Positions 6,041 to 63,464 of a stretch of DNA of 64,000 bases are shown here, in pieces (the first letter of the stretch is position 1; every line of letters begins with the position of its first letter). Source of the stretch: Lucinisca nassula (Eukaryota > Mollusca > Bivalvia > Lucinida > Lucinidae); the NCBI GenBank assembly GCA_963580285.1, contig OY757026.1, positions 44,633,431 to 44,697,430 on the forward strand, written 5' to 3'. Under the pieces are notes generated by a model, which saw only the letters and a program-made list of their open reading frames with translations, was not told the origin of the DNA and searched no databases. Both the position numbers and the translations under genes were made by a program.

Positions 6041-8092
6041 AAACAAGAGGACCATGATGGTCCTATGTGCTCACCTGAGCTAAGAGATTCATATGTGGGT
6101 CCCAGGTCTATGATTTGAACAATCTTGGTAAAGGTATACTAAATGAAGCTTAATATCAAATATCAAAGGCCTGGGCGTTCTGGTTTCAGACAAGAAGATT
6201 TATAAACATTTTCCCTATATAAGTCAATGTATAATCAGTGGGCCCCGGGGTGGGGTGCTTTTTGGTCCCCGGTCTATAAATTGAATAATCATGGTAGAGG
6301 TCCACTGACTCCACTAAATGAAGCTTCATACCAAATATCAAAGACCCTGGCCTTCTGGTTTCAGACAAGAAGATTTTTAAAGGTTTTCCTTATATATGTC
6401 TATGTAAAACCAGTGGGCCCCAGGGTGGGGCCGTTTTTAGCCACAGGGGTATAATTTGAATAATCTTGGTACGGGTCCACTAGAAGAAGCTTCATACCAA
6501 ATATCAAACATCTGAGCCTTCTGGTTTCAGACAAGAAGATCTTTAAAGATTTTCCCTACATATATATCCAATTGGCACCGCCCAGAGGCCAGATTTGGTC
6601 CCAGACCTATAATTTGAACAGTCTTGGTTGAGGTTCAATAGATGAAACTTCATACCAAATATCAAAGACTGGGCTTTCTGGTTTCAGACAAGAAGATTTT
6701 TAAAGGTTTTCCCTATATACCTTTGTTAACCCAGTGGGCCCCGCCCCTGGGCCATTTTTGGCTCCAGGGCTTTAATTTGAACAACCTTGGTAGAGGTCCA
6801 CTAGACGAAGCTTCACACCAAACATCAAAGACCTGGGCCTTCTGGTTTCAGACGAGAAGATTTTTAAAGGGTTTCCCTATATAACCCTATGTAAAAACCA
6901 GTGGGCTCCGCCCCGGGGCCATTTTTTGCCCCAGGGCTATAATTTGAACACTCTTGGTAGAGGTCCACTAGATGAAGCTTCATACCAAATATCGAAGACT
7001 TGGGCCTTCCGGTTTCAGACAAGAATATTTTCAAAGCTTTTCCCTATATACCTCAATGTTATCCTCGTGGGCTCCGCCCCTGGGCCAGTTTTGGCTCTAG
7101 GGCTATGATGTGAACAATCTTGGAAGATGTCCACTAGATGAAGCTTCATACCAAATATCAAAGACCTGGGCCATTGGGTTTCAGACAAGAAGATTTTAAA
7201 GGTTTTCCCCCTTATACCTCTATGTAAGCCCAGTGGGCCCCGTCCCGGGGCCATGTTTGGCTCCAGGGCTATAATTTGAACAATCTAGGTACAGGTCCAC
7301 TAGACGAAGCTTCATACCAAATATCAAAAACCTGGGCCATTTGGTTTCAGAAAAGAAGATTTTCAAAGGTTTTCCTTATGTAACTCTATGTTAACTCAGT
7401 GGGCCCCGCCCCTGGGCCATTTTTGGCTCTGTGGCTATAATTTGAACAATCTTGGTAGAGGTCCACTAGATGAAGCTTCACACCAAATATCAAAGACCTT
7501 GGCCTTTTGGTTTCAGACAAGAAGATTTATAAAGGTTTTCCCTATATAACCCTATATAAAACCAATGGGCCCGCCCCGAGGCCATTTTTGGCCCCAGGGC
7601 TATAATTTGAACAATCTTGATAGAGGTCCACTAAACGAAGCTTCACACCAAATATCAAAGACCTGGGCCTTTTGGTTTCAGACAAGAAGATTTTTAAAGG
7701 TTTTCCCTATATAACCTATGTAAAACCAGTGGGCCCCGCCCCCGGGGGCCATTTTTGGCCCCAGGGATATAATTTGAACAACCTTGGTAGAGGTCCACTA
7801 GAAGAAGCTTCATACCGAATATCAAGGGCCTGGGCCTTCTGGTTTCATACAAGAAGATTTTTAAAGGTTTTCTCCTATTTTTTTCATTTTTGTTGCCATG
7901 GCAACCAGAGTTCTGCATGGAATTGAATTCTTTGAACAACTTGGAGAGAGGACCACCTATGGATTATTTCTGTCAAGTTATGTCCAAATCTGTTCAGTGG
8001 TTTAGGAGGAGATATTGGTTAAAGAAATTGTGAACGGACGGACGACGACGGAGGTGACCGATCACAATAGCACACCCTGAGCCTTACTTTGA
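6041..8092 (+). mobile_element. H1: Helitron/pearl-like non-autonomous element with ~165-bp tandem array
   Basis: The 5' end reads AACAAGAGG, then the palindrome GGACCATGATGGTCC, then GTGCTCACCTGAGCT. The body is about ten copies of a 164-167 bp unit (landmarks ATTTGAACAATCTTGG, AGGTCCACTAGATGAAGCTT, CAAATATCAAAGACCTGGGC, GTTTCAGACAAGAAGA). The right part has TTGCCATGGCAACC, GTGGTTTAGGAGGAGAT and GGACGGACGACGACGG. The normal terminal hairpin is missing after CCTGAGCC, so the 3' end is truncated. There are no coding genes. Central tandem arrays with subterminal inverted repeats recall pearl elements and HINEs; this class is inferred. Confidence 0.72.
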
Positions 8093-9992: not shown

Positions 9993-10213
9993 GTTTTGTT
10001 TGTTGTAAGGTTTGACGTCCCATCAACACATTATAGGTCATTTTGGAGACGTTGCTTCTAATTTTGTGGGACTTTTACCCGACATTGGGATGAAATGACA
10101 TCTCAATCTCTGTCATCCAATGAAACTAATATGGTTAATAAGCACGGATGGTCCGACTCGCGCCCCTTTGCCTGGGCAAGCTTAGATCCCCTAAGCGGTT
10201 TACCAGTACTCCT
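9993..10213 (-). mobile_element. SINE family A, head-truncated, abutting the reverse transcriptase frame
   Basis: Minus-strand copy whose plus-strand reading runs from a decayed tail (TTTGTTGTAAGGTTTGACGTCC) through GGACTTTTACCCGACATTGG to CGGTTTACCAGTACT. It stops there, ~85 bp short of the head. The open frame of the neighbouring reverse transcriptase extends backwards through this copy and starts inside it. Confidence 0.85.
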
Positions 10214-12200
10214 ACAGGTGCCGTCGGAAGCAAGTCCACCGCAATCACCGCAACTACATAAAAATAGCATCACACAAAATGAATATTACCAGGATATACA
10301 TAATAATAAATGTAGTGTGCATTATTTCACCTCTCTAAATATTGATGCGAGTCTTAATAAAATATTAAGCAGAGGCCCCAATTTTGTACCAACAGTACTA
10401 GAGAATGAGGGCAACTTTGAAAAATTATATATAGAAGAAATACTGAGTACATTAATGAAATACTCAGATATGGTTAATAGTATAGAACCATATAGACATA
10501 TAAGAGATGTGGCCCTAAAACTGAACCTTAACAACCCCCAGTTATCACAACAAACTAAATCTTACATGTTAGATATACTAGAAAAATCATGTGAGACCTA
10601 TCACAATAACCCTACCAAAACAATAGTAACTAATACTAATATTACATATACTGATAATAATCTTATACAGCAGATTGCTGATAAGCCTGATATAGTTATT
10701 AATACAGCAGACAAAAATCTAGGGTTTTGTATCAATAACTTAAGTTGGTACGTACATGAGTATGATAGGCAACTCAGTGATTCTACAGTTTACCAGAATA
10801 TACCATATACCGAAATACAAGGTATAATAGAGCTAGGTATCAAAAATCTAGAAAATCTCAATCAAAAATATAAAGACTATCAAGATAAGATACAATTAAA
10901 CTTAAAAATATTACTACATAGAAATGCTACAGATGTACAACTACCTACACTAAACATCAGCCCTAAAGTCCATAAGTTCAATGAGGAAGCAAAACCTCAA
11001 TTGGAACCTATGCTGAAAGGTAGACCTATAGTAAATGGTTTTTCTACCTTAAACACGGAACCATCAAAACTTTTAGGGTCTATATTCAGATCCTGTTTAG
11101 AAAAATGCATATATAAAGCAAATATAGAAGGCATAGAATCGCCCATAATCAAAAGCTCCAGAGATGTTGTGGACAAACTTAGCAAATTGTCATTACAAAA
11201 GTGCTGTTTAGACAATATCTACTTTATCACATTTGATTTCTCATCATTATATACATCAATCAGTAAACGCACCCTATTTGACACAATACATTTTATTGGG
11301 GACTTTTTGAAACTTGATAAGATTCTTATCAACTTAATGAAAGATTTATTTAACTACATAAAAGAGAATGCATACTTTACAGTAGGTAATACTAAACTCT
11401 ATGTACAAAAAGAAGGTTTTGCTATGGGATCATATGATTCAGCAGATGGTGCTAACTTAGTACTCTTCAAAGCTGAATATTTTATGGCCAAGCACGGCTG
11501 TGTAAACAGACACATTTTGTGTTTTAACAGATTTATAGATGATGGCAGCATTATTGCACACGTAACATTTGAGACTGTAGAAGAACTCATCAAATGTATA
11601 GCATCCTACTATCCCAAAGAACTTGAAATTGAATTCAACGTTAAGAAATTTCAAACAGATTTCCTAGACCTTACATATGGAATAGGGCATACTACATATG
11701 TAGACAAAAAATGCTACTACCACATATACCAAAAGAAATTTAATACATATACCTACACCCACTTTCAATCAAACCACCCAGAAGGGGTGTTTAAAGGTAT
11801 CATTACCACAGAATGTCACAGATATAGATACCTCAGTAGTACAGAAAATGAATATTTGCATATATGCAACCTATTCAAGCACAGACTTATGAAATGTGGA
11901 TACCCAAAAGAATACATACAAAAACACCTTCTACCATATAACAAGGATACTCAATCAGACAACAACAAATCAAATATGAAAATATTAAAAAACAACTGCA
12001 AAATCAGATGCAGACATATAGTAAACAAAACTAACAATTCCAAAAATTTACTCAAACATATTTTCAAAACCAAAGACAAACAAATACAAAAAATACAGCT
12101 TTGCAATATAACAATGAAAAAGCTTAAGACAATTCTGTTAACAAAAAAGAAACTGCATAAGAAAATACAAAAATATATGGAAACAGATATGAATGGGTAA
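10095..12200 (+). CDS. Divergent Penelope-like reverse transcriptase frame, with SINE-derived N terminus
   Basis: An uninterrupted 701-codon frame. Residues 1-40 are translated SINE. The remainder is a reverse transcriptase: SPKVHK at 289-294, GRPIVNG shortly after, motif A FDFSSLYTS with Asp381, motif B EGFAMGSYDSADGANL around 440-455, motif C FNRFIDDG with Asp482-Asp483, FLDLTYG near 527, and an HPEGVFKG region then a RL-X3-GYP block like Penelope-like elements. The C-terminal ~90 residues are Lys/Asn-rich. No GIY-YIG or other endonuclease domain is visible. The first in-frame Met outside the SINE is far inside the protein, so the true start (or a spliced 5' exon) is unknown. A+T content is clearly above the neighbours'. 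Catalytic residues are intact, but activity is not established. Confidence 0.72.
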   Translation: MTSQSLSSNETNMVNKHGWSDSRPFAWASLDPLSGLPVLLQVPSEASPPQSPQLHKNSITQNEYYQDIHNNKCSVHYFTSLNIDASLNKILSRGPNFVPTVLENEGNFEKLYIEEILSTLMKYSDMVNSIEPYRHIRDVALKLNLNNPQLSQQTKSYMLDILEKSCETYHNNPTKTIVTNTNITYTDNNLIQQIADKPDIVINTADKNLGFCINNLSWYVHEYDRQLSDSTVYQNIPYTEIQGIIELGIKNLENLNQKYKDYQDKIQLNLKILLHRNATDVQLPTLNISPKVHKFNEEAKPQLEPMLKGRPIVNGFSTLNTEPSKLLGSIFRSCLEKCIYKANIEGIESPIIKSSRDVVDKLSKLSLQKCCLDNIYFITFDFSSLYTSISKRTLFDTIHFIGDFLKLDKILINLMKDLFNYIKENAYFTVGNTKLYVQKEGFAMGSYDSADGANLVLFKAEYFMAKHGCVNRHILCFNRFIDDGSIIAHVTFETVEELIKCIASYYPKELEIEFNVKKFQTDFLDLTYGIGHTTYVDKKCYYHIYQKKFNTYTYTHFQSNHPEGVFKGIITTECHRYRYLSSTENEYLHICNLFKHRLMKCGYPKEYIQKHLLPYNKDTQSDNNKSNMKILKNNCKIRCRHIVNKTNNSKNLLKHIFKTKDKQIQKIQLCNITMKKLKTILLTKKKLHKKIQKYMETDMNG

Positions 12201-15065: not shown

Positions 15066-15126
15066 CATATACAATATTGGATCAGGTTGACAGGTTGAAA
15101 CGGTTTACAATATTAGACCATAATTT

Positions 15127-16425
15127 AGGCTTTTATAGGGAAAATCTTTAAAAATCTTCTTCTCTGAAACCACAAGACCCAGGTCTTTTATATTTGGTAT
15201 GAAGCTTCATCTAAAGGACCCCTTACAAGATTATTCAAATTATAGTGCTGAGGCCAAAGAATGTCCCCGCCCCGGGGCCATTTGGTTTTACATAGGCTTA
15301 TTTAGGGAAAATCTTTAAAAATCTTCTTCTCTGAAACTGCAAGGCCCAGGACTTTGATATTTGGTATGAAGCTTCATCTAGTGGACCCCTACCAAGATTG
15401 TTCAAATTATAACCCTTGGGTCAAAAATGCCCCCGCTCCGGGGCCCTTTGGCTTTACATAGACTTATATAGGGAAGATCTTTAAAAATCTTCTTCTCTGA
15501 AACCACAAGGCTTAGGTCTTTTATATTTGGTATGTAGCTTCTTCTAAAGGACCCCTACCAAGATGATTCAAATTATAGTGCACGGGCCAAAAGTGGCCCC
15601 CGCCCCGGGCCCTTTGGTTTTACATAGGCTTATATAGGGATAATCTTTAAAAATCTTCTTCTCTGAAACCACAAGGCCCAGGACTTTGATATTTGGTATG
15701 AAGCTTCATCTAATGGACCTCTACCAAGGTTTTCAAATTATAGCCCTGGGGCCAAAAATGCCTCCGCTCTGGGGTCCTATGGTTTTACATAGACTAATAT
15801 AGGGAAAATCTTTAAAAATCTTCTTCTCTAAAACCACAAGGCCCAGGTCTTTGATATTGGTATGAAGCTGCATCTAGTGGACCTCTATCAAGATTATTCA
15901 AATTATAGCTTTGATACCAAAAATGTCCCCGCTCCGGGGCCATTTGGTTTTACATAGACTTATATAGGGAAATCATTAAAAATCTTCTGAAACTGCAAGG
16001 CCAAGGCCTTTGATATTTAGTATGGAGCTTTATCTACTGGACCTCTACCAAGATTGTTCATATTATAGCCCTGGGGCCACAAATGCCCCCCACCCCGGGG
16101 CCCTTTGGTTTTACATAGATTTATATAGCCCCGGGGCCATTTGGTTTTGCATAGGCTTATGTAGGGAATATCTTTAAAAAATCTTCTTGTCTGAAACCGC
16201 AAGGCCCAGGTCTTTGATATTTGATGTATAGCTTCATCTAGTGGACCTTTGCCAAGATTGTTCAAATTATAGCCTTTGTTAATGTTTGGTATGAAGCTTC
16301 ACCTTTAAGACCTCCCTCAACATTATGCACATTAAAGCCCTGGGGCCAATAATGGCCCTCTCTGGGACCCACTTGTTACACTATGGATCAGGTGAGCGAT
16401 CCAGGGCCATCATGGCCCTCTTGTT
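15127..16425 (-). mobile_element. H2: inverted relative of H1 with ~165-bp tandem array
   Basis: On minus it starts near 16425 with AACAAGAGG, the palindrome GGGCCATGATGGCCC and GATCGCTCACCTGATCC, then runs through about seven units related to H1. Landmarks on plus: GGAAAATCTTTAAAAATCTT, TTTGATATTTGGTATGAAGC, AAGATTGTTCAAATTATAGC. The 3' end is truncated near 15127. The units are closer to those of H3 than to H1 in their TTCAGAGAAGAAGA block. Confidence 0.72.
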
Positions 16426-17468: not shown

Positions 17469-18107
17469 GGAACCCGGGAAGGGACATGATTTTTTTTAAT
17501 ATGTTGTGCGAACAAGATATTAAGTTGTGCGAGCAAGATATTATCTTTTGCGGACAACATAATTTATCTTGCGCGGACAACATATTATCTTGTCCACACA
17601 AGATAATATCTTGTTCGCACAACTTAATATCTTGTGTGCACAAGATATTATCTTGTTCGCAAAACATATTATTTTGTTTGCACAACAAAGATCTTGGGAA
17701 GTTGTGCGAGGAGGATATTATCTTGTGCCGACAAGATATTATCTTGTTCGCACAACATATTATCTTGAGCGCACAAGATATTATTTTGTGTGGACAAGAT
17801 AATATCTTGAGCGCACATGATATTAAGTTGTGCGAACAAGATAATATCTTGTCCGCACAAGATCTATGTTGTGCAGACAAGATATTTTCTTGTGCGGACA
17901 AGATTATATCTTGTTCGCACAACTTAATACCTTATGCGAACAGGATAGTATCTTGTCTGCACAAGATAATATGTTGTCCGCACAAGATAATATCTTGTGC
18001 ACACAAGATAATATGTTGTGCACATAAGATAATATCTTGTGCGCACAAGATATCTTTTGCGCACAACTTATAAAAATAAAAAAGAACATGTCCCTTCCCG
18101 GGTTCCG
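17469..18107. mobile_element. Inverted-end element filled with ~24-bp palindromic units
   Basis: The outer ends are inverted: CGGAACCCGGGAAGGGACATG at 17469-17489 and its complement at 18087-18107. The interior is ~25 units of about 24 bp. Each is nearly self-complementary, e.g. ACAAGATAATATCTTGT joined by GCGCAC/GCGGAC/CAACTT. Long open frames appear on both strands (Cys/Ile/Leu-rich repeats) only because the unit lacks stops. Probably a satellite-carrying MITE; no transposase. Confidence 0.75.
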
Positions 18108-18270
18108 TAGGGAAGGGACATGATATTTTTTATTTTATAAGTTGAGCGCACAAGATAATATGTTGTCCGCACAAGATAAAATGTATGTATTTATCTTGTT
18201 CGCACAACTAATTATCTTGTTCGCACAACATATTAAAAAAAAAAAATTCATGTCCCTTCCCGAGTTTCGC
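18108..18270. mobile_element. Second, shorter copy of the palindromic-unit element
   Basis: Begins directly after the previous element with GTAGGGAAGGGACATGA and ends at CATGTCCCTTCCCGAGTTTCG. It carries only about four palindromic units. The shared central end may reflect nested or tandem insertion. Confidence 0.65.
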
Positions 18271-20603: not shown

Positions 20604-20688
20604 ATTGGCGACGAGGATGCCCATTGTTTCGGGAGAAAATATATGTGTCAGGACATAAAATCGGACTAAACAGAATCGCTCTATAAAG

Positions 20689-21750
20689 ATGGCAGCAGCA
20701 TTACCAGTTTTTCAGAAGTTTGACATTTTTAGTGATGAAAACAGTGTCGGTATACGTTGGAACAAGTACATTTCTAAACTTGAAAATTTGTTTACTGGCT
20801 TGGCGATAGAAGCTAAAAAGAGGAAAAAGGCACTTTTATTGCACTACGCTGGGGACGAAGTTTACGAAATTTATGAGACCTTGAATTTGAGTGCCGACGA
20901 TTCCAACTACGATGCGACAAAGACAGCTCTCAGTAATCATTTTAATCCTAAGAAAAACAAGGAATTTGAACGTTTTGAATTCAGGAACATTAAACAAGCA
21001 CAAAATGAAACAATTGACCAATTTGCCACAAGACTGCGTCAAAAAGCAGAGAACTGTGAATTTACTGTAAAAGAAGATGAAATCAAAAGTCAAATTATTC
21101 AGGGTTGCTATTCACAGAGACTAAGAACAAAATGTTTGGAAGAGGATAAAGAGCTGAAAGATTTATTGACAATGGCTCGTACAATGGAAATTGCAAGTAA
21201 ACAAGCCAAAACTATAGGAAATAAGGATAGCAGTTCCATGGACAATAATGTGGACAAAATAAAAAGCAAGTTTTCGGATAATACGCCGTCAAGACGCCCA
21301 ACGTTCAATCAGCGTAGATCAGGACCACCGAAACCTCAACAAAAATGCAGGAATTGTGGGGGAAATTTTCCCCATGTGACAAAATGTCCAGCTCTCGGTC
21401 TAGAGTGTCACTATTGTCACAAACGAAATCACCTTATTTCGGTGTGTAGGAAAAGGCTTCGGAATAGAAATAATCAGCAACGTTTGAGGGAAATTGCGGA
21501 AAATAGAGGGGATTCTGGAATTGATGCAGAGTTTAATGAACACAGTGACATAAACCTTGATTCCGACCCGGAAATCTCCTTTGGATTAAAAAGCGACAAA
21601 GTGAGTCAAACAGAAAGTAAAGTTCCATGCATGACGTTAAAAATCAATGACGTTGTTACAAAGTCGCTCATCGACACAGGGTCGTCTATAAACATTATTG
21701 ATGAACGTGTCGTGGAGAAAATGTCTCCAAGGCCCCGTTTACAAAAATAA
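20689..21750 (+). CDS. gag: Gag polyprotein with two zinc knuckles and start of aspartic protease
   Basis: A 353-codon frame. The N-terminal ~180 residues form the retrotransposon capsid-type domain, with the FNPKKNKEFERFEFRNIKQ region and QTRLRQKAENCEF-like helix near residues 85-125. Residues 220-233 are a CX2CX5HX3C knuckle and ~240-253 a canonical CX2CX4HX4C knuckle, expected to bind element RNA. Residues ~318-336 hold the protease active site LIDTGSSINII with Asp329. The frame ends in TAA shortly afterwards, while protease-like sequence continues in another frame. The start is the first ATG after the leader, 85 bp past the LTR. The particle would assemble in the cytoplasm. Confidence 0.88.
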   Translation: MAAALPVFQKFDIFSDENSVGIRWNKYISKLENLFTGLAIEAKKRKKALLLHYAGDEVYEIYETLNLSADDSNYDATKTALSNHFNPKKNKEFERFEFRNIKQAQNETIDQFATRLRQKAENCEFTVKEDEIKSQIIQGCYSQRLRTKCLEEDKELKDLLTMARTMEIASKQAKTIGNKDSSSMDNNVDKIKSKFSDNTPSRRPTFNQRRSGPPKPQQKCRNCGGNFPHVTKCPALGLECHYCHKRNHLISVCRKRLRNRNNQQRLREIAENRGDSGIDAEFNEHSDINLDSDPEISFGLKSDKVSQTESKVPCMTLKINDVVTKSLIDTGSSINIIDERVVEKMSPRPRLQK

Positions 21751-21890
21751 AAAAATAAAGGCCTTCGCGTTTGGACAAAATAAACCTTTAGAAATTAAAG
21801 GGAAATACACATGTACAGTGGAAAATTCCATGAAATTCACGACTGCAGAATTTCATGTTGTGCCGAAAATAAAGAGAACAGTATTAGCTA
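21750..21890 (+). pseudogene. Out-of-frame protease-to-polymerase linker
   Basis: Between gag and pol the natural protein sequence continues in a third frame (KIKAFAFGQNKPLEIKG, then KFTTAEFHVVPKIK), before returning to the frame of pol near 21880. At least two compensating indels are needed, so this copy cannot make a continuous Gag-Pol by one ordinary frameshift. Confidence 0.75.
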
Positions 21891-24243
21891 TCAGACAGCT
21901 ATAGCTATTCCAGCCATTCGATCATTAACAGAGGGACACTTCTCGGATTTATGTGACAAGTATAAGAGCGTTTTTGAAGGGCTTGGAAAGTTAAAAGATC
22001 GTGAAATCAAGTTTCATATAGATGAATCAGTCGTTCCGGTAGCACAGAGTCCACGGCGGGTCCCGTTTAACCTACGTGAGAAGGTAGAAAAAGAACTTGA
22101 CCGTCTGGGGAAAATGGACGTTATAGAACCTGTAACTGGAGCTACCCCGTGGGTCTCAAATTTAGTTGTAGCACCAAAAGCAAACGCCCCAAATGAGATA
22201 CGACTTTGTGTGGATATGCGTAAAGCAAATCAAGCAATTAAAAGAGAACGTCACGTTACACCAACAATAGACGACATAATTTTAGAATTAAATGGCTCAA
22301 CAGTGTTTTCAAAAGTTGACCTAAATAAAGGTTTTCACCAGCTGGTCTTCTCCGAGGAAAGCCGAAACATGACTACGTTTGCAACTCACGTCGGTCTCAG
22401 ACGTTACAAACGCTTAAATTTTGGCGTTTCTTGCGCGCCGGAAATTTTTCAAAATGAGATTCGCCAGGCCCTGGAAGGATTAAACGGAACATTAAATATC
22501 AGTGACGATATAATTGTACATGGTAAGACCCGTGAAGAACATGATCAAAACCTAGAAGCGCTGTTGAATAGGTTGCAAGAGAAAAACTTAACTTTGAATA
22601 AAAACAAGTGTGAGTTTGGAAAAACCAAAATAAAATTCTATGGATTTATTTTCTCTGAAAGTGGATTTTCTCCTGACCCGCAGCAGATTGAGGCCATTAA
22701 AAATGTGGAAAGGCCGAAAACAGTGACTGAAATCCGTAGTTTTCAAGGCATGACAAATCACGTTGCACGCTTGATTAACAATTATTCATCAATTACTGAA
22801 CCTCTGCGTCGGTTAACAAAACAGGATTATGCCTTCGAATGGACAGATGACCAAGAACAAGCATTTATTCGTTTAAAGGAGAGCTTGGTAAGTGACCAAG
22901 TTATGACTTATTTCGACCCTAGTTTGCCCTCAGAATTGTGGGTAGACGCGAGTCCAGTTGGTGTGTCCGGTATCCTAATACAGCAAGGGAAAATAGTATC
23001 ATACGGCAGCCGTGCACTGAGTCCAACAGAACAGCGGTACAGTCAAACAGAACGAGAAACGCTAGCTTGTGTTTTTGGCTGCGAACATTTTCATCTGTAT
23101 CTGTTCGGGAAAGCATTCGTATTAATCACTGATCACGCTCCACTGGAAAGCATATTTAATAATGTGAAACAGATACACAATGCTCGTTTGGAGAGATTTA
23201 GACTTAGGTTAAATACCTACAATTTCAAAGTAAAATATCGTAAAGCATCAGAAATGATCTCGGATTATTGCTCTAGGCATCCCTATAAACCCTATACAAA
23301 CACGAACATTGCTGAAGATTATGTCATATTTATGACACGTGCCGCGCAGCCTGCCGCATTATCATTATCAGACATTGCAGAAGCCACAGATGATGACGTT
23401 ATCTTGAAATCTGTTATGGACGCGGTGCAGCGAAATACATGGGAAAAACAAAAGTGTAAAAATGATGAGGTTTTTCAGTGCTATAAGACACTATCTACAG
23501 AACTATCGGTTGTGTTAGTAGAACAAGGTACTGTCTTACTACGAGGTACGAGACTGTGTATACCAGAAACATTGCAAAAACAGGTTGTTGATCTTGCCCA
23601 TGAGGGTCACCAAGGTCGAGTTAAATGTAAGGCATTGCTTCGAGAGACATTGTGGTTCCCATATATGGATAGACTTGTTGATGAGATATGCAGGGACTGT
23701 ATTCCATGTCAGGCATTTTTGAACCAAACAACTCCTGACCCGATCAAACCAACTGAATTACCAAAACAACCGTTTAGTGACCTATCTGTGGATTTTTGTG
23801 GACCGTTTACGTCGGGATATTATTACATGGTAATTTTGGATGACTATAGTCGTTTTCCCGTGGTCGAGAAACTGTGTAATCTTACGGCAAAGACCGTAAT
23901 AGCGCGTCTCGAGAAATTTTTCAGTATCTGGGGTATCTGTAATACATGCAGAACGGACAATGGTCCTCCGTGGAATTCAGAGGCAATGAGAGAATTCGCA
24001 GCACATATGGGATTTGTACATCGGAAGGCTATCCCATATCACCCAATGGGAAATATTCAGGTAGAAAGCTTCATGAAACCGCTTCAAAAGGCAATAAAGA
24101 ATGCAGTGGCAGCTGGCTTAAATTATGAGACAGAAATCACGAAATTTCTCATAAATTTTCGGAACACGCCGAATGGAGCTTTAGGGCTAAGTCCGAGTGA
24201 AATTGTGTTCAAACGAAAGCTAAAAACGAAACTACCCCAATGA
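21811..24243 (+). CDS. pol: Pol: reverse transcriptase, RNase H and integrase core, C-terminally truncated
   Basis: An 810-codon frame; the first ~25 codons are off-frame. Reverse transcriptase: PRRVPFNLREKVEKEL near 85-100, motif A FSKVDLNKGFHQ with Asp170, motif C ISDDIIVHG with Asp232-Asp233. RNase H: WVDASPVGVSG with Asp379, ERETLAC, TDHAPLE with Asp441. Integrase: an HHCC zinc module starting at His597 (HEGHQGR...CRDCIPCQ), then catalytic Asp661 (DFCGP), Asp716 (TDNGPP) and Glu752, giving the D,D(35)E spacing. The frame stops after PSEIVFKRKLKTKLPQ. The missing C-terminal part reappears at 27269, beyond the inserted block. All visible catalytic residues are intact. Confidence 0.92.
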   Translation: MYSGKFHEIHDCRISCCAENKENSISYQTAIAIPAIRSLTEGHFSDLCDKYKSVFEGLGKLKDREIKFHIDESVVPVAQSPRRVPFNLREKVEKELDRLGKMDVIEPVTGATPWVSNLVVAPKANAPNEIRLCVDMRKANQAIKRERHVTPTIDDIILELNGSTVFSKVDLNKGFHQLVFSEESRNMTTFATHVGLRRYKRLNFGVSCAPEIFQNEIRQALEGLNGTLNISDDIIVHGKTREEHDQNLEALLNRLQEKNLTLNKNKCEFGKTKIKFYGFIFSESGFSPDPQQIEAIKNVERPKTVTEIRSFQGMTNHVARLINNYSSITEPLRRLTKQDYAFEWTDDQEQAFIRLKESLVSDQVMTYFDPSLPSELWVDASPVGVSGILIQQGKIVSYGSRALSPTEQRYSQTERETLACVFGCEHFHLYLFGKAFVLITDHAPLESIFNNVKQIHNARLERFRLRLNTYNFKVKYRKASEMISDYCSRHPYKPYTNTNIAEDYVIFMTRAAQPAALSLSDIAEATDDDVILKSVMDAVQRNTWEKQKCKNDEVFQCYKTLSTELSVVLVEQGTVLLRGTRLCIPETLQKQVVDLAHEGHQGRVKCKALLRETLWFPYMDRLVDEICRDCIPCQAFLNQTTPDPIKPTELPKQPFSDLSVDFCGPFTSGYYYMVILDDYSRFPVVEKLCNLTAKTVIARLEKFFSIWGICNTCRTDNGPPWNSEAMREFAAHMGFVHRKAIPYHPMGNIQVESFMKPLQKAIKNAVAAGLNYETEITKFLINFRNTPNGALGLSPSEIVFKRKLKTKLPQ

Positions 24244-37228: not shown

Positions 37229-37738
37229 ATATTTCAGTATATATGAAGGGCGAAAGCAGTGATTTATAAATATCTTTACTGCTTTTGAAAAGATTCCCAA
37301 TAAAACTGTAATGCGTACATCCTATCTTAAATGTGTTCTTTGTTTTCAAAGACCATCATACGACTTATAAACGTATTTCACTTTACTTAGCTTGTCTTAA
37401 ATGTCATCTTTTGGCGTAAAACGTCTTCCCGTGCTTCGTAAACAATATTTATATTTTTATTTCTTTCAGATCTTTGTCTCATTTTAGTAGATTCGAACCT
37501 CGAGCTGTGTACACGGTAGAGGGTGCAACCAGTGTTTCAAATTCATTAATGCTTTTGAAGACACTCAATAAAACATAGACTCCAATTTTCTACTTGCAAA
37601 GTGCCTTTATATTAAATAGCTATATTTCACAGTGTCGTACATTGGTCCATTCAGTGTATGCTAGTACAAGTGACAACTGCAAACAAAGTCAAGACAGTTT
37701 CGCTGCTTTAAAACAGTCAACTTACACTAGAAGTCTTA
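37229..37738. other. No gene seen
   Basis: Non-coding. A 61-codon frame at 37594 runs into the next repeat and is not called. Confidence 0.4.
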
Positions 37739-37910
37739 GCCTTGCTTCCAAAGGATATCCCTCTATAGAACATATTTAACGTCACTACAGCCGGTGTCTG
37801 GGAATGTGTGGCGGCCGTAAAAAGTCTCCCTGACCTACATCATAGTGTAGTTTATATTTTCTTGTCCTTTGGAATCAATGATTCCATTGTTGAATTTTGA
37901 AAATATTTGA

Positions 37911-37955
37911 GGGTCACTGATGAGGCTTAATTGCCGAAACTAGCTAGTCTGGCCC
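37911..37955 (+). ncRNA. Hammerhead ribozyme, unit 1 (type I, short stem III)
   Basis: Stem I GGGTCA (37911-37916) pairs with TGGCCC (37950-37955) with one G-U pair. The core CTGATGA is at 37917-37923. Stem II is GGC/GCC around TTAATT. GAAA is at 37936-37939. Stem III is CTA/TAG with a GC loop, followed by the cleavage triplet GTC, with predicted cutting after 37949. All core nucleotides match the consensus. Stem III is too short to be stable alone, so activity may need a dimer, as in Penelope-like and retrozyme hammerheads. Confidence 0.82.
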
Positions 37956-38186
37956 AGAAACTTGTACACTCCATATTTTCCAGCCAGTTGTTTTTTTTTT
38001 TTTTTTTTGTGTATTCCTTGCTTCCAAAAGGTAACCCTCTATAGAACATATTTAACGCCACTACAGCTGGTGTCTGGGAATGTGTGGCGGCCGTAAAACG
38101 TCTCCCTGCCCTACAACATAGTGTAGTTTATATTTTATTGTCGTTTGAGATCATTGGTTCCATTGTTGAATTTTGAAAGTATTTGA

Positions 38187-38232
38187 GGGTCAATGATGAG
38201 GCCTAATTGGCCGAAACTAGCTAGTCTGGCCC
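38187..38232 (+). ncRNA. Hammerhead ribozyme, unit 2, with a core mutation
   Basis: Same fold with a better stem II (GGCC/GGCC around TAATT), GAAA at 38213-38216 and GTC at 38224-38226. However, the first core base is A instead of C (ATGATGA at 38193-38199), which should abolish or cripple cleavage. Confidence 0.78.
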
Positions 38233-38316
38233 AGAAAATATGTACACTCCATATTTCAAGTTCTTTGGTGTATTCCTTGCTTCCAAAGGATAGCCCTCTA
38301 CAAAACATATTTATCA

Positions 38317-38471
38317 GAAGCATTATGTCTTTTTTTACAACAAGATGCACTAGTTTACAACTGCCACTGGAAACAAAATAAGTTTGATAAAGCTACATGT
38401 ATACATAAATTAGGTATCTGGTGTCCAAATGTATGTAAAACGCAGAATATCAGTCTACATATATCTGCCAA
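38317..38471. other. No gene seen
   Basis: Spacer between the retrozyme-like repeat and the Penelope-like 3' fragment. Confidence 0.35.
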
Positions 38472-39262: not shown

Positions 39263-39525
39263 CAAAGGGAACAATGAAGCCTCCCTTCGAGTTTTCGACG
39301 GGTTCACATTGTTTCCTCACGTCGACTGTGATTGCAAATAGCAAGTTGTAGAGAGAAGTCTGCACTGGAGCAAAAATGCTTCAAATTTCACATGAAAACT
39401 GTGGAAAGGTCTTTCCAATGAAAAAAAAAAAAAAACGGGTAGTATGGAAAAAGATTGATGACACAAAGCTTGACAATTTTACAGAGTTGACTGAGGATGA
39501 ACTAAGGGACCTGACCATGGGATTA
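39263..39525. other. No gene seen
   Basis: Non-coding spacer with an A-rich run at 39420-39435. Confidence 0.35.
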
Positions 39526-39818
39526 GTTCGGTAGCTCAGTCGGGTGCGCGTCTGACTGGTGATCAGGTGGACGCGGGTTCGATACCTGCCAGGGTCGGCA
39601 ACATTCTTTCGTGGGGATTGATCAATAAATAGGTCATTCTCTCCCTTACGCTGATTCAAGAAGGACAGTTGTCATTTTTTGGCGAAAGAATGTGCACTGT
39701 ATTGGTTAACCGCTTACGTATACGCCTGACCACGAAAAGTGTGTATATGTAAACTGACCCCTCAAAATGACCTAAATAGTGTTGATTTGGCCTTTTAACT
39801 CCAATACAAACAAACAAC
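39526..39818 (+). mobile_element. SINE family D, near-complete
   Basis: tRNA-like head with A box TAGCTCAGTCGGGTGCG and B box GGGTTCGATACC; body with CATTCTTTCGTGGGGATTGA, GGCGAAAGAATGTGCACTGT, GGTTAACCGCTTACGTATAC; tail AGTGTTGATTTGGCCTTTTA and a CAAACAAAC run. The head is decayed and extended, so it is not a working tRNA gene. No clear target duplication. Confidence 0.88.
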
Positions 39819-45027: not shown

Positions 45028-45410
45028 AATCACATGCCCTATTCATGCTATCGTGGGGCCCCGATCACGACTGTGATGGTTTTAGTTTCAGTTTTATCTT
45101 CTCACTCGACCAACATGCCTTGCGAATAGTGCCTACTAGGGTGGAATAAGGTCGGTAAGACAAATAGGGCTAGATAAGATTTTCTAAACCCTGTGCAAAT
45201 TTTGGATATTCTCATCTTTTATGCAAAACATTCTTATTTCACCCACCTTATCTCATCAAATAGGTATGATACTCTGATACTCGAGCATTTTCAGGCTCCT
45301 TACCTGTCAGTGATAGGTGGGGTAACTGGGGATCATGGAGCCAACGCACGTTTTCATGTGTTGTACAACGTCGATTCAGGTGGGACAAATTTATTTAATT
45401 ATTTTCTATA
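45028..45410. other. No gene seen
   Basis: Non-coding; a 72-codon frame at 45193 shows nothing recognisable. Confidence 0.35.
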
Positions 45411-45640
45411 AAAGGGTTATCCTTTGGAAGCAAGGAATACACCACAGAACTGAAAAATATGGGATGTATATGTTTTCTGGGCCAAACTAGTTAGTTTCGG
45501 CCAATTAGGCCTCATCAGTGACCCTCAGATAGTTTCAAAATTCCACAATGGAATCAATGATCTCGAAGGACAAGAAAATATAATCTACACTATGATGTAG
45601 GGCAGGGAGACGTTTTACCGCCGCCACACATAACCCTACA
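45411..45640 (-). mobile_element. Retrozyme-like repeat, single minus-strand unit
   Basis: The reverse complement matches most of one 276-bp unit of 37739-38316, from TGTGTGGCGGCGGTAAAACG to GTGTATTCCTTGCTTCCAAA. It begins part-way through the unit. It has an intact hammerhead motif. Confidence 0.8.
45479..45524 (-). ncRNA. Hammerhead ribozyme, third copy, intact core
   Basis: On minus: stem I GGGTCA/TGGCCC, core CTGATGA, stem II GGCC/GGCC around TAATT, GAAA, stem III CTA/TAG with an AC loop, and cleavage triplet GTT. The loop and triplet differ from the other copies while every paired or core position is kept. That is the pattern expected if the fold has mattered. Confidence 0.82.
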
Positions 45641-46746: not shown

Positions 46747-49700
46747 AACAAGAGGGCCATGATGGCCCTGGATCGCTCACCTGACCCATATGATAGAGTA
46801 ACAAGTGGGCCTCGGGGAGGGCCATTATTGACCCCAGGGCTACAATGTGCATAATGTTGAGGGAGGTCTAAAAAGGTGAAGCTTCATACCAAATATCAAC
46901 AAAGCCTATTATTTGAACAATATTGGCAAAGGTCCACTAGATGAAGCTACACACCAAATATCAAAGACCTGGGCCTTGGGGTTTAAGAGAAGATTTTTTA
47001 AAGATATTCCCTACATTAGCCTATGTAAAACCAAATGGCCCCGGGGCGGGGGCATTTTTGGCCTCAGGGCTATAATTTAAACAATCTTGATAGAGGTCCA
47101 CAAGATGAAGCTTCACAACAAATATCAAAGACCTAGGCCTTGCTGTTTCAGAGAAGAAGATTTTCAAAGATTATCCCTATATATAAGTCTATGTAAAACC
47201 AAAGGGCCCCAGGGCAGGGGCTATAATTTGAACAATCTTGGTAGAGGTCCACTAGATGAAGCTCATTACCAAATATCAAAGACCTGGGCCTTGTGGTTTC
47301 AGAGAAGAAGATTTTTAAAGATTTCCCTATATAAGTCTATGCAAAACATAATTTGAACAATCTTGATAGAGGTCCACTAGATGAAATTTCACACCAAATA
47401 TCAAAGACCTAGGCCTTGTGGTTTCACAGAAGAAGATTATTAAAAGATTTTCCCTATATAAGTCTATGTAAAACCAAAGGGCCCCCGCGACAGGCATTTT
47501 TGGTCTCAGGGATATAATTTGAACAATCTTGGTAGAGGTCCGCTAGATGAAGCTTCATACCAAATCTCAAAGACCTAGGCCTTCTGGTTTCAGAGAAAAA
47601 GATTTTTCAAGATTTTCCCTATATATAAGTCTATGTAATACCAAAGGGCCCTGGAGCGGGGGCATTTTTGGCCCCAGGGCTATAATTTGAACAATCTTGG
47701 TAGAGGTCCACAAGATTAAGCTTCATACCAAATATCAAAGACCTAGGCCTTGTGGTTTCAGAGAAGATTTTTAAAGATTTTCCCTATATAAGTCTATGTA
47801 AAACCAAAGGGTCCCGAGGCGGGGGCATTTTTGGTCTCAGGGCTGTAATTGAACAATTTTGGTACAGGTCCACTAGATGAAGCTTCATACCAAATATCAA
47901 AGACCTAGGCCTTGTGAATTCAGAGCAAAAAAGATTTTTCAAGATTTTCCCTATATAAGTCTATGTAAAACCAAAGGGCCCTGGAGCGGGAGCATTTCAG
48001 GCCCCAGCACTATAATATGAACAATCTTGGTAGGGGTCCACTAGGTGAAGCTTCATACCAAATATCAAAGACCTGGGCCTAGCGGTTTCAGAGAAGAAGA
48101 TTTTTAAAGATTTTCCCTATATATGCCCATGTAAAACCAAAACGTCCCGGGGCTGGGGCATTTTTGGCCCCAGCACTAAAATTTGAACAATCTTGGTAGG
48201 GGTCCACTAGATAAAGCTTCATACCAAATACCAAAGACCTGGGCCTTACGGTTTCGGAGAAGAAGGTTTTTAAAGATTTTCCCTATATAAGCCCATGTAA
48301 AACCAAAGGGCCCCGGAGCGGGGGCATTTTTGGCCCCAGCACTATAATTTGAACAATCTTGGTAGGGGTCCACAAGATGAAGCCTCATACCAAATATCAA
48401 AGACCCGGGCTTTGTGGTTTCAGAGAAGAAGATTTTTCAAGATTTTCCATATATAAGCCCATGTAAAACCAAAGGGCCCCGTAGCGGGGGCATTTTTGGC
48501 CCCAGGGCTATAATTTGCACAATCTTGGTAGGGGTCCACTAGATAAAGCTTCATACCAAATATCAAAGACCTAGGCTTTGCAGTTTCAGAGAAGAAGATT
48601 TTTAAAGATTTTTCCCTATATAAGACCATGTAAAACCAAAAGGCCCAGGGCCCGGGGGGGACCTGGGCCTTGTGGGGTGAAGCTTCATACCAAATATCAA
48701 AGACATTGGCCTTACGGTTTCAGAAAAGAAAATTTTTAAAATTTTTCGCTATATAAGCCCATGCAAAACCAAAGGGCCCCGGAGCAGGGGCATATTTGAC
48801 CCAAGCACTATAATTTGAACAATCTTGGTAGGAGTCCACTAGGTGAAGGTTCATACCAAATATCAAAGACCTAGGTCTTGCGGTTTCAGAGAAGAAGATT
48901 TTTAAAGATTTTCCCTATATAAGCCCATGTAAAACCAAAGGGCCCTGGGGCGGGGGCATTTTTGGCCCCAGCACTATAATTTGAACAATCTTGGTAAGGG
49001 TCCCCTAGATGAAGCTTCATACCAACTATCAAAGACCTGGGCCTTACGCTTTCAGAGAAGGAGATTTTTAAAGCTCTTCTCTATATAAGCCCATGTAAAA
49101 CCAAAGGGCCCTGGAGCGGGGGCATTTTTGGCCCCAGCACTATAATTTGAACAATCTTAGTAGGGGTCCACTAGATGAAGCTTCATACCAAATATCAAAG
49201 ACCTGGGCCTTACGGTTTCAGAGAAGAAGACATTTAAAGCTCTTCCCTATATAAGCCCATGTTAAACCAAAGGGCCCTGGAGCGGGGGCATTTTTGGCCC
49301 CAGCACTATAATTTGAACAATCTTGGTAGGGGTCTACTAGATGAAACTTTATACCAAATATCAAAGACCTGGGCCTTGCGGTTTCAGAGAAGAAGATTTT
49401 TAGCTCACCAGAGCCGAAGGCTCCGGGGGAGCTTATAGGATATGCAGTTGTCCGGCGTCTGCGTCGTCTGCGTCTGCGTCGTCTGCGTCTGGTGACGTCA
49501 ACACTTTTAAACGACATCTCCTCTGAAGCCGCTAGGCCGATTGGGCCCATATTTCATCTGTAGCATCCTTGTGTTGGGGGATTGAAAGTTTGTGTTTTTT
49601 ATGAAATTCGGCTCTTTAGTTTGGTTGCTATGGCAACTTAGAGTTTCCATAGACATAAATAATATGGGGAAAATTGAAAAATGGCATTTACTGCCTAGCT

Positions 49701-57275: not shown

Positions 57276-57653
57276 TTACGTTGGAACCGTCATAGAATCT
57301 GAGGCCTGACCCACCGGCGTGCAATTAAAGAGGGAAGCAAAGTTGTCAACCGTGATTGGGTTAACTACCACGCATGCAGTCTGTCGTATAACATTTATGT
57401 TGTACCCAATCGTTTTATATCGAAGAATGATTTTACGAAATTGGGTGCTGAAGTCATTGCGGTTATAATTTTTTATAAATTTATATGCTAAGTCACCATA
57501 AAATTCGAGTTCCGATAGACCTTGTTGCAGAAGAGATTTACGTCCAGTATTGAATTTTGAAATTAAATCAGAATGACGTCTATAAAATTTTGAAAAGGCT
57601 TTCCGTAGTTTATGATACCGATAACCCTGATTAAGAAGTTTAGCCGTTAACAA
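57276..57653 (-). pseudogene. Penelope-like protein C-terminal fragment
   Basis: 125 codons: LTAKLLNQGYRYHKLRKAFS, FYRRHSDLISKFN, LLQQGLSELEFYGDLAYKF, a basic helix and the conserved-looking end NCTPVGQASDSMTVPT. The YRYHKLRKAF block corresponds to the GYP-type thumb region after the polymerase. No nuclease domain is seen. Confidence 0.75.
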
Positions 57654-57863
57654 TTTATTACGAGTGTTGAGGTCAGTTACATGACTTCATGCTCTGGCAA
57701 ATCGAATTGTGAAATATAAACGCCATAGGATGGCGCAGGTGGCACATCACCATCCAAAAATGGAAATCGCGTTTATCATAAATTTTGCAAGAAACAAACC
57801 CCTCCTAAATAGATAGATGTAAATCCAAAAACGGGGCCTCGGTATATGAAGAATTTGCTTTAT

Positions 57864-58166
57864 TTAACTGAAGTTTGGGGGCGGGGGAAGGGGGTAAATT
57901 TGACTGATCAAACCATCGAAATAGGTATTATCAATATTTAATAAATCATCCAAATATCTAGAAGTGGAGCTCAAAGCTTCAATGATTTCAGACTGGTTAT
58001 CAGCAGAAAGGGACAACATGAAGACTTTCTCATAACAAAACAAAAGCAGATCAGCCACAAGTGGTGCGTAATTAGTACCCATTGGAATACCCACAACTTG
58101 TCTAAATAACTTTGTACCAAATCTTATGTAAATATTGTCAAGTAGAAAGGTGAGAGTTTCACACAC
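57864..58166 (-). pseudogene. Penelope-like reverse transcriptase, motifs B and C
   Basis: 100 codons with motif B RQVVGIPMGTNYAPLVADLL and motif C STSRYLDDLLNIDN, carrying the two catalytic aspartates. The frame breaks in a C-rich stretch just after, YPLPPPPNFS. Sequence upstream (58170-58460) encodes further reverse transcriptase segments only in fragments. Confidence 0.82.
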
Positions 58167-58468
58167 CTTCTGACATGACCATAAAGTATAGTGTTTATGC
58201 CCTTCAGAAGTGAAAAACGCATTTCTTACATTACATGCAAGATAGAGGGAGTCTTCCCTATGAAATGTCCATTCAATTAATTAAATCATTAAGTTTTTCT
58301 TTTATAAGATTATGAGGAAGTGTAGTGTAAAGGGTGGAAAAATCATAAGTAGACAGACTTGAAGCACGAAAACGTCTGGATTCCAATTTATTTAAAACTT
58401 CATTAGAATTTTTACAGACCAAAACAGATTTCTACCTGATCTTTCGAATACTTTGTCGCAATATTTTA

Positions 58469-61471: not shown

Positions 61472-63464
61472 ATAAACAAGAGGACCAAGCTAGCTTGGTC
61501 CTGTATCGCTCACCTGAGCTAACAGATTCAAAGTTTAAGGAAGTGCCAACCTTTACTGAAGGCTTTATGGGAGGACATGGTGATGACAGGGTAAGCATTT
61601 TCTGAAAATCAAGTAGAATGTAACTCTATGATAAACAGGCTGACCTCACCGGTTTTCAAACTCATTCAAGCTTTTATTCCTGACTTGCTAAGAAGATCCG
61701 ATCTAAACTGAAGTGGCGATGGTGATGACAAGTTCAAAAACAGGAGTTTTCAAACTCCTCCAAGCTTTCTGCCTGACTTCCTTGTTTGTAAGTTTCATGA
61801 AGATCCGTTTAAAACTAAAGGGGCAGCAGTGATGACAATGTCGAAAATAGACATTTTCAGCAATCAAAGGCACGTCACTCTATGATAAATGTGCCGACTT
61901 GGCCGGTATTCGACCTCACCTGAGGTTTTATTCCCAGCCACCTTACATGTAAGTTTCAGAAAGATCCGATCAGACTTGGCCAGTATTCAAACTCATCCAA
62001 GATTTTATTCCCAGCCACCTCACATATAAGTTTCAGAAAGATCCGATCAAAACTGAAGGGGCTACGGTGATGACAAGGTCAAAATTTGGCATTTTTAGCA
62101 ATCAAAGGGAGAAGTTACTCTAAAATAAATGAGCCGACTTGGCCAGTTTTCGAACTCATCCGAGGTTTCATCCCCAGCCACCTTACATATAAGTTTCAGA
62201 AAAATCCGATCAAAACTGAAGGGGCTACGGTAATGACAAGGTCAAAAATCAACATTTTCAGCCATCAAAGGGACATAACTCTACGATAAATGGGCTGACT
62301 TGGCCTGTTTTCGAACTCATCCAAGATTTTATCCCCAGCCACCTTACATATAAGTTTCAGAAAGATCTGATCAAAACTGAAGGGGCTATGGTGATGACAA
62401 GGTCAAAAATCGGCATTTTCAGCCATCAAAGGGACGTAAATCAATGATAAATGGGCCAACTTGTCCGGTATTCAAACTCATCCTAGGTTTTATCTCCAGT
62501 CACCTTACATATAAGTTTCAAAACGATCCGATCAAAACTGAAGGGGCTACAGTGTTGACAAGGTCAAAAATCAACATTTTCAGCAATCAAAGGGACCTAA
62601 CTCTATGATAAATAGGCCACCTTTGCCGGTATGTGAACTCATCTGAGGCTTTATCCCCAGCAACCTTGCATATAAGTTTCAGAAAGATCCGATCAAAACT
62701 GAAAGGGCTACGGTGATGACAAGGTCAAAAATTGGATTTTCAGCAATTAAAGGGACGTTACTCTGTGATAAATGGACCAACTTGGCAGGTTTTCGAAGTC
62801 ATCCGAGATTTTATCCCCAGCCACTTTACATATAAGTTTCAGAAAGATTCGATCAAAACTGAAAGGGCTACAGTGATGACAAGGTCAAAAATCAGCATTT
62901 TCAGCAATCAAAGGGACGTTACTCTAAGATAAAAGGGTCGACTTGGTCGGTTTTCGAACTCATCCGAGATTTTATCCCCAGCCACAATACATATAAGTTT
63001 TAGAAAGATCCGATCAAAACTGAAGGGGCTACGGTGATGACAAGGTCGAAAATGGGCATTTTCAGCAATCAAAGGGACGTAACTCTATGATAAATGGGCC
63101 GACTTGGCCGGTTTTCGAACTCATCCGAGATTTTATCCACAGCCACCTTACATACAAGTTTCAGAAAGATCCGATCAAAACTGAAGGCGCTACGGTGATG
63201 ACAAGCATTTTCCCATAGTAAGTCTATGGGACCTTGTGGTTGCCATAGGAACCAAAGTTTAAGAGCGATTTCAAAAAAAGTTTATGTCATCAATGCCCCA
63301 CCAGAGGCATGCTACAGATGAGAAATGATTGAGATCAGCCTGCAGGATACAGAGATATAACTGCTCAAAAGTGTGGACGGACGACGGACGGACGACGGAC
63401 GACGGACGACGGAGGACCCACTATACTATAAGCTCCCCTGGAGCCTTCGGCCCAGGTGAGCTAA
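61472..63464 (+). mobile_element. H5: H-type element with ~161-bp tandem array, bounded by an empty site
   Basis: 5' AACAAGAGG, palindrome GGACCAAGCTAGCTTGGTCC, then CGCTCACCTGAGCTAACAG. About nine units of ~161 bp (landmarks TTTTATCCCCAGCCACCTTA, AGAAAGATCCGATCAAAACT, GGTGATGACAAGGTCAAAAA, AATCAAAGGGACGT). The right part has TTGCCATAGGAACC, GGACGGACGACGG repeats and a hairpin ending GGTGAGCTAA. W1 shows uninterrupted sequence at the corresponding point (25126-25146), which defines the insertion. The unit sequence differs from H1-H4 but its length and ends are alike. Confidence 0.78.

What the first reader, a model, noticed from the sequence alone, without database searches (positions are those of the whole stretch)
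37739..38316. Tandem hammerhead-ribozyme repeat (retrozyme-like element)
Two ~276-bp direct units each contain a compact fold matching the hammerhead consensus: stem I GGGTCA/TGGCCC, core CTGATGA, stem II, GAAA, a 3-bp stem III with a 2-nt loop, then GTC. Type I hammerheads with such short stem III in short non-coding tandem repeats are the published signature of animal retrozymes, which are thought to spread through circular RNA. Unit 1 has an intact core; unit 2 has a C-to-A change at the first core base. The motif is read directly; the retrozyme label is inference.
Basis: partly seen in the sequence, partly recalled or inferred. Interest (0 to 1): 0.85.

Follow-up and report, generated by a model that had tools for sequence, protein, structure and literature searches.

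The report
Decayed ribozyme retroelement in mollusc genome
This looks like a worn, double copy of a tiny non-coding mobile element that carries a self-cutting RNA (a hammerhead ribozyme), of a kind already described in mussels and other animals; it is a new sequence of a known kind.

Summary
Window 37740-38313 is a head-to-tail dimer (units of 276 and 259 bp plus 39 bp of a third). Both full units hold a type I hammerhead (HHR) fold at the same place: intact in unit 1 (37911-37955), C3-to-A in unit 2 (38193). A third, 5'-truncated copy (minus strand, 45395-45631) has an intact core with U at the cleavage position. A descriptor written after seeing the motif finds 2 intact motifs against 1 in 150 shuffled windows; Rfam gives only a sub-threshold hammerhead match. 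Stem III is a ten-base palindrome, best drawn as 3 bp under an AGCU tetraloop; for unit 1 with itself or with unit 2 the cofold minimum is the dimeric double hammerhead. Both insertions end at nearly the same unit position (39 and 40), 170 nt from the cleavage site. Size, GC, tandem form and HHR type match published metazoan non-LTR retrozymes, known from a mussel (PMC7229834). No target-site duplication was found, cleavage and circular RNA are untested, and the genome search did not complete. Verdict: probably an old, decayed member of a known kind in a bivalve-like genome.

The parts
37740..38015 (+). unit 1 of the tandem element (276 bp, GC 38%), with a run of T near its 3' end
38016..38274 (+). 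unit 2 (259 bp, GC 41%)
38275..38313 (+). first 39 bp of a third unit; homology ends at unit position 39
37911..37955 (+). hammerhead type I motif of unit 1, intact core (C3 37917, C17 37949; predicted cut after 37949)
38187..38232 (+). hammerhead type I motif of unit 2; first core base C3 is A at 38193; C17 at 38226
45395..45631 (-). third, 5'-truncated solo copy; homology to the unit ends at unit position 40
45479..45524 (-). hammerhead type I motif of the solo copy; intact core (C3 45518), U at the cleavage position 45485

Best explanation
The locus is a decayed genomic copy of a metazoan non-LTR retrozyme, a non-coding, non-autonomous retroelement. Proposed cycle: a transcript with two or more units self-cleaves at the type I hammerheads after C17 and releases a monomer of about 277 nt; a host tRNA ligase closes it into a circle; the reverse transcriptase of an autonomous element, most likely a Penelope-like or LINE element, copies the circle more than once round from a preferred start point; and the tandem cDNA is integrated. 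Shown here: the tandem anatomy, a hammerhead-shaped motif in 3 of 3 units (core intact in 2), and a second insertion with nearly the same 3' end. Inferred from the published system: cleavage, circularisation, reverse transcription and the helper. The dimeric (two-unit) form of the ribozyme is the predicted minimum when two isolated motifs meet. If that form operates, unit 1's core would cut at unit 2's site even though unit 2's own core has lost C3 (inference).
For: Tandem units and a third copy elsewhere in the window. Intact HHR motifs in 2 of 3 units; 1 chance hit in 150 shuffles. The cofold minimum of two unit-1 motifs, and of unit 1 with unit 2, is the double hammerhead with a 10-bp helix III (-37.3 and -40.6 kcal/mol). 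Of 500 rearrangements of the helix III letters, 20 give that fold, all 20 among the 25 that are palindromes. In the free minimum fold of 37701-38330 all ten helix III pairs form between the units (37939-37948 with 38216-38225). The dimer spans 2 units plus 39 bp and the solo copy ends at unit position 40, as expected of reverse transcription from a preferred start on a circular or multimeric RNA. Published metazoan retrozymes: dimers to multimers, about 170-400 nt, GC below 45-50%, type I HHR, known from the mussel Mytilus galloprovincialis (PMC7229834). The window encodes a bivalve-like Gypsy pol (62% to Mya arenaria, 61% to Ruditapes philippinarum) and a frame distantly related to Penelope-like reverse transcriptases.
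Against: No Rfam hammerhead match above threshold. No target-site duplication above chance (shuffle p 0.49 and 0.85). HHR positions are not significantly more conserved than the rest of the unit (Fisher p 0.43, 0.19, 0.23). As a monomer the HHR fold lies 1.9-2.9 kcal/mol above the free ensemble, and the minimum fold of the 277-nt circle does not contain it. In the two-unit transcript the full double hammerhead lies 5.6 kcal/mol and the monomeric unit-1 hammerhead 3.5 kcal/mol above the free minimum. For the solo motif the cofold minimum is not the double hammerhead. No RNA data; no other genome copies could be examined.
Confidence: 0.8

Rival explanations
1. The two units are orphaned pseudo-LTR repeats of a Penelope-like element (PLE) or Terminon, whose minimal type I hammerheads also come in tandem; the coding part has been lost.
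For: PLE pseudo-LTRs carry tandem minimal type I HHRs that may work as dimers (PMC7761336 passages). A frame distantly related to PLE reverse transcriptases lies in the window at 10062-12200. Whether canonical loop-loop contacts exist here could not be judged.
Against: PLE HHRs usually lack the non-conserved helix III bases; here helix III can form 3 bp with a tetraloop. A scan of the whole window that allowed an empty helix III (stem I at least 5, stem II at least 3 bp) found only the two motifs already known, so none near the PLE-like frame. No reading frame of 120 aa or more overlaps the dimer.
Confidence: 0.13
2. An ordinary tandem duplication of a dispersed repeat in which the hammerhead-like fold is a chance or fossil feature without function.
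For: HHR not significantly more conserved than the rest; Rfam below threshold; one of three cores is broken.
Against: About 0.007 chance hits expected per window (1 in 150 shuffles, descriptor set afterwards); the motif sits in repeats of the published size and dimeric form; the palindromic helix III gives the dimeric ribozyme as cofold minimum for unit 1.
Confidence: 0.07

Closest known systems
Metazoan non-LTR retrozymes (Cervera and de la Pena 2020, PMC7229834), in particular the mussel Mytilus galloprovincialis family
   Same: Type I HHR motif, short low-GC tandem units from dimers upward, no large reading frame in the unit, mollusc-like host.
Amphibian (newt, axolotl) HHR satellite or retrozyme repeats
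   Same: Weak helix III; a palindromic tetraloop as in axolotl type 1; tandem units; dimeric cleavage possible.
   Different: Helix III has 2 bp besides A15.1-U16.1, as PMC7229834 describes for axolotl type 2 and invertebrate motifs; units are shorter (axolotl 330 and 350 bp); other host group.
Pseudo-LTRs of Penelope-like elements and Terminons
   Same: Tandem type I HHRs that may act as dimers.
   Different: Those HHRs are minimal, usually without helix III bases (PMC7761336); no reading frame of 120 aa or more is joined to these units.

Membership tests
Metazoan non-LTR retrozyme | type I hammerhead motif with conserved core | tested here: met
   2 of 3 units with an intact CUGANGA...GAA core; 1 of 3 with C3A. 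Sequence criterion only; Rfam score below threshold.
Metazoan non-LTR retrozyme | short tandem units, about 150-450 bp, dimer or more | tested here: met
   276 + 259 + 39 bp
Metazoan non-LTR retrozyme | low GC (below 45-50%) | tested here: met
   38.4% and 40.9%
Metazoan non-LTR retrozyme | no LTR, primer binding site or polypurine tract | not tested
   no formal search was made
Metazoan non-LTR retrozyme | target-site duplication larger than 4 bp, when present | tested here: inconclusive
   best dimer flank match 8 of 10 bases, shuffle p 0.49; solo p 0.85; the published feature is optional
Metazoan non-LTR retrozyme | loop 1 - loop 2 tertiary contacts of canonical type I HHR | tested here: inconclusive
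   with the core enforced, stem I continues beyond a short internal loop in units 1 and 2, not in the solo copy; the contacts cannot be judged from this
Metazoan non-LTR retrozyme | self-cleavage and abundant unit-length circular RNA | not testable with these tools
   needs RNA
Metazoan non-LTR retrozyme | many genomic copies | tested here: inconclusive
   2 insertions in 64 kb; the genome search did not complete
Penelope-like element pseudo-LTR | minimal HHR lacking helix III bases (usual, not invariable) | tested here: not met
   all 3 motifs have ten helix III letters that can form 3 bp plus a tetraloop
Penelope-like element pseudo-LTR | repeats joined to a PLE reverse transcriptase frame | tested here: not met
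   no frame of 120 aa or more overlaps 37740-38313; the PLE-like frame is at 10062-12200. Orphaned repeats would look the same.

The most novel reading that the evidence does not exclude
The shared 3' end of two separate insertions (unit positions 39 and 40, 170 nt from the ribozyme cut) marks a fixed reverse-transcription start on the circular RNA. A palindromic helix III makes the ribozyme act mainly as a dimer, so that a unit with a broken core is still cut by its neighbour and carried along. That would be anatomical evidence for the unproven step of the animal retrozyme cycle, how circles return to DNA.
Probability: 0.25. Interest if true: 0.55.

Novelty: new member of a known kind. Interest (0 to 1): 0.3.

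Why it matters
Animal retrozymes are a recently recognised source of ribozyme-made circular RNA, and how the circles return to the genome is unproven (PMC7229834 treats it as a model). A family with a dimer-forming ribozyme and a repeated insertion end would let one map the priming site from genome copies alone. This single locus, on its own, is an ordinary decayed copy.

Tried and rejected
Rfam at gathering score (whole window) and at E up to 10 (37700-38350) gave no significant hammerhead. Pol III promoter: no B box in the dimer or the solo copy, at up to 2 mismatches for the full and 1 for the relaxed consensus; A-box-like matches at 1 mismatch are frequent (14 in the dimer stretch, 6 in the solo stretch) and uninformative; a tRNA-SINE origin is thus not supported. 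Target-site duplication: none above chance. Selection on the HHR: not significant in 3 of 3 pairs. Minimal PLE-type HHRs elsewhere in the window: none at the settings used. Relatives in viral contigs (3 exact patterns) and prokaryote genome contigs (2 patterns): 0 matches, as expected for an animal repeat. Papers: Cervera and de la Pena 2020 (PMC7229834) read in parts 1-4 of 6; passages only of PMC7761336 and PMC6155905; the others as search listings. PMC5785218 (Lunse 2017) and PMC4209133 (Cervera 2014) are not held and were not seen. The searches with Mytilus, bivalve and mollus listed no paper whose title or shown abstract concerns a retrozyme of another bivalve; one search showed 20 of 31.

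Full report
What is there. Window 37740-38313 is a direct repeat: unit 1 (37740-38015, 276 bp), unit 2 (38016-38274, 259 bp), and the first 39 bp of a third (38275-38313). Aligned in register, 37740-38054 and 38016-38313 are 85.2% identical over 317 columns; unit 1 has a long T run that unit 2 lacks. A third copy lies on the minus strand at 45395-45631, 90.0% identical over 219 columns to 38080-38297. It begins inside the unit, so it is 5'-truncated. There is no reading frame of 120 aa or more over the dimer.

The ribozyme motif. In each of the three units the same place can be drawn as a type I hammerhead: stem I GGGUCA/UGGCCC, core, stem II of 3 bp (unit 1) or 4 bp (unit 2, solo), GAA, stem III, and the cleavage position. 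Unit 1 has an intact core and C17. Unit 2 has A for C3 (38193). The solo copy has an intact core and U17. With a descriptor set after the motif was seen, the window holds 2 intact motifs, and 150 dinucleotide shuffles of the window hold 1 in all. Rfam's hammerhead models do not reach threshold; the best is RAGATH-1-hammerhead at 20.9 bits, E 0.6. So the motif exceeds chance by the descriptor, but it is not a significant covariance-model hit.

Stem III. ACUAGCUAGU is better read as A15.1-U16.1 and 2 bp under an AGCU tetraloop, the shape that PMC7229834 gives for axolotl type 2 and invertebrate HHRs. The ten letters are a palindrome. Two unit-1 motifs, or unit 1 with unit 2, have the dimeric double hammerhead as their cofold minimum (-37.3 and -40.6 kcal/mol). 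Of 500 rearrangements of the eight inner letters of helix III, 20 give that fold: 20 of the 25 that are palindromes and 0 of the 475 that are not. So the palindrome is what permits the dimer. In the free minimum fold of 37701-38330 all ten helix III pairs form between the units, but the whole double hammerhead lies 5.6 kcal/mol above the free minimum and the monomeric unit-1 hammerhead 3.5. The isolated monomer motif lies 1.9-2.9 kcal/mol above its free ensemble, and the circular fold of the 277-nt unit lacks the hammerhead. For the solo motif the cofold minimum is another fold.

Ends. The dimer starts at unit position 1 and ends at position 39; the solo copy ends at position 40. If ends fell evenly over 277 positions, two within 2 nt of one another would be expected about 2% of the time. 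This was noticed after the fact, with two insertions, and the A+T-rich end makes the exact point uncertain. The cleavage position is at unit position 210 of unit 1, so these ends are not ribozyme cuts. No target-site duplication rises above shuffles (p 0.49 and 0.85).

Conservation. HHR columns differ at 3 of 46, 4 of 46 and 3 of 46 in the three pairs, against 12 of 133, 22 of 145 and 16 of 133 outside. The direction is as expected of selection, but Fisher p is 0.43, 0.19 and 0.23.

Host. A Gypsy pol frame (21799-24243) has 1081 relatives at E up to 1e-150, of which the best 120 were listed. The best three (75-85%) are unnamed. The best named ones are Mya arenaria (62%) and Ruditapes philippinarum (61%), followed by proteins in bins named Thiodiazotropha and Sedimenticola (55-56%; recalled as bivalve symbionts, so probably host sequence) and by Pinctada imbricata (54%). 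The host is therefore probably a bivalve (inference). A 712-aa frame at 10062-12200 matches no Pfam model here but has 107 relatives: 46 of them, though none of the closest 33, carry the reverse transcriptase domain PF00078, and 4 of the 107 also GIY-YIG (PF01541), among them one of Argopecten irradians (E 2.8e-6). Reverse transcriptase with GIY-YIG is the Penelope-like combination (established knowledge). No GIY-YIG was found in the frame itself.

Comparison. PMC7229834 describes non-LTR retrozymes in animals: 150-450-bp tandem repeats, dimers to multimers, low GC, type I HHR, expressed as linear and circular RNA of about 170-400 nt, a tRNA ligase the likely closing enzyme, PLEs a strong candidate helper. 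In Mytilus galloprovincialis the units are about 350-390 bp. The window's element meets the sequence criteria that could be tested and fails none that is obligatory. PLE pseudo-LTR HHRs usually lack helix III bases, which is not so here.

Verdict. Most likely an old, decayed copy of a metazoan non-LTR retrozyme, probably of a bivalve: a new member of a known kind. Catalysis, circular RNA and the helper are inferred. The most useful new point is the repeated 3' end together with the dimer-forming helix III, which genome copies could test at once; that search could not be run because the genome tool did not complete.

Noticed in passing
window 10062-12200 (+): Open frame of 712 aa, distantly related to Penelope-like reverse transcriptases, without a detected GIY-YIG domain; no hammerhead motif near it at the settings.
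   Followed up: partly
window 57276-58280 (-): Two frames that look by eye like fragments of another reverse transcriptase; no Pfam hit of note.
   Followed up: no
window 39525-39597 (+): tRNA-Thr (GGT) gene or tRNA-derived repeat, 30.9 bits in Rfam (cut-off 29), also called by ARAGORN, 1.2 kb downstream of the dimer.
   Followed up: no
window 20659-24243 (+): Gypsy-type gag and pol frames; the pol is 85% identical to an unnamed relative and 62% to Mya arenaria, the best clue to a bivalve host.
   Followed up: partly
window 6101-7878, 15126-16128, 46906-49402: Arrays of what looks by eye like one 166-bp satellite-like unit in three places, the middle one in the opposite orientation.
   Followed up: no
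window 17497-18235: About 0.7 kb of a near-palindromic 21-bp repeat (TATCTTGTGCGCACAAGATAT).
   Followed up: no
window 61973-63205: 161-bp tandem array of 7.7 copies, 87% matches.
   Followed up: no
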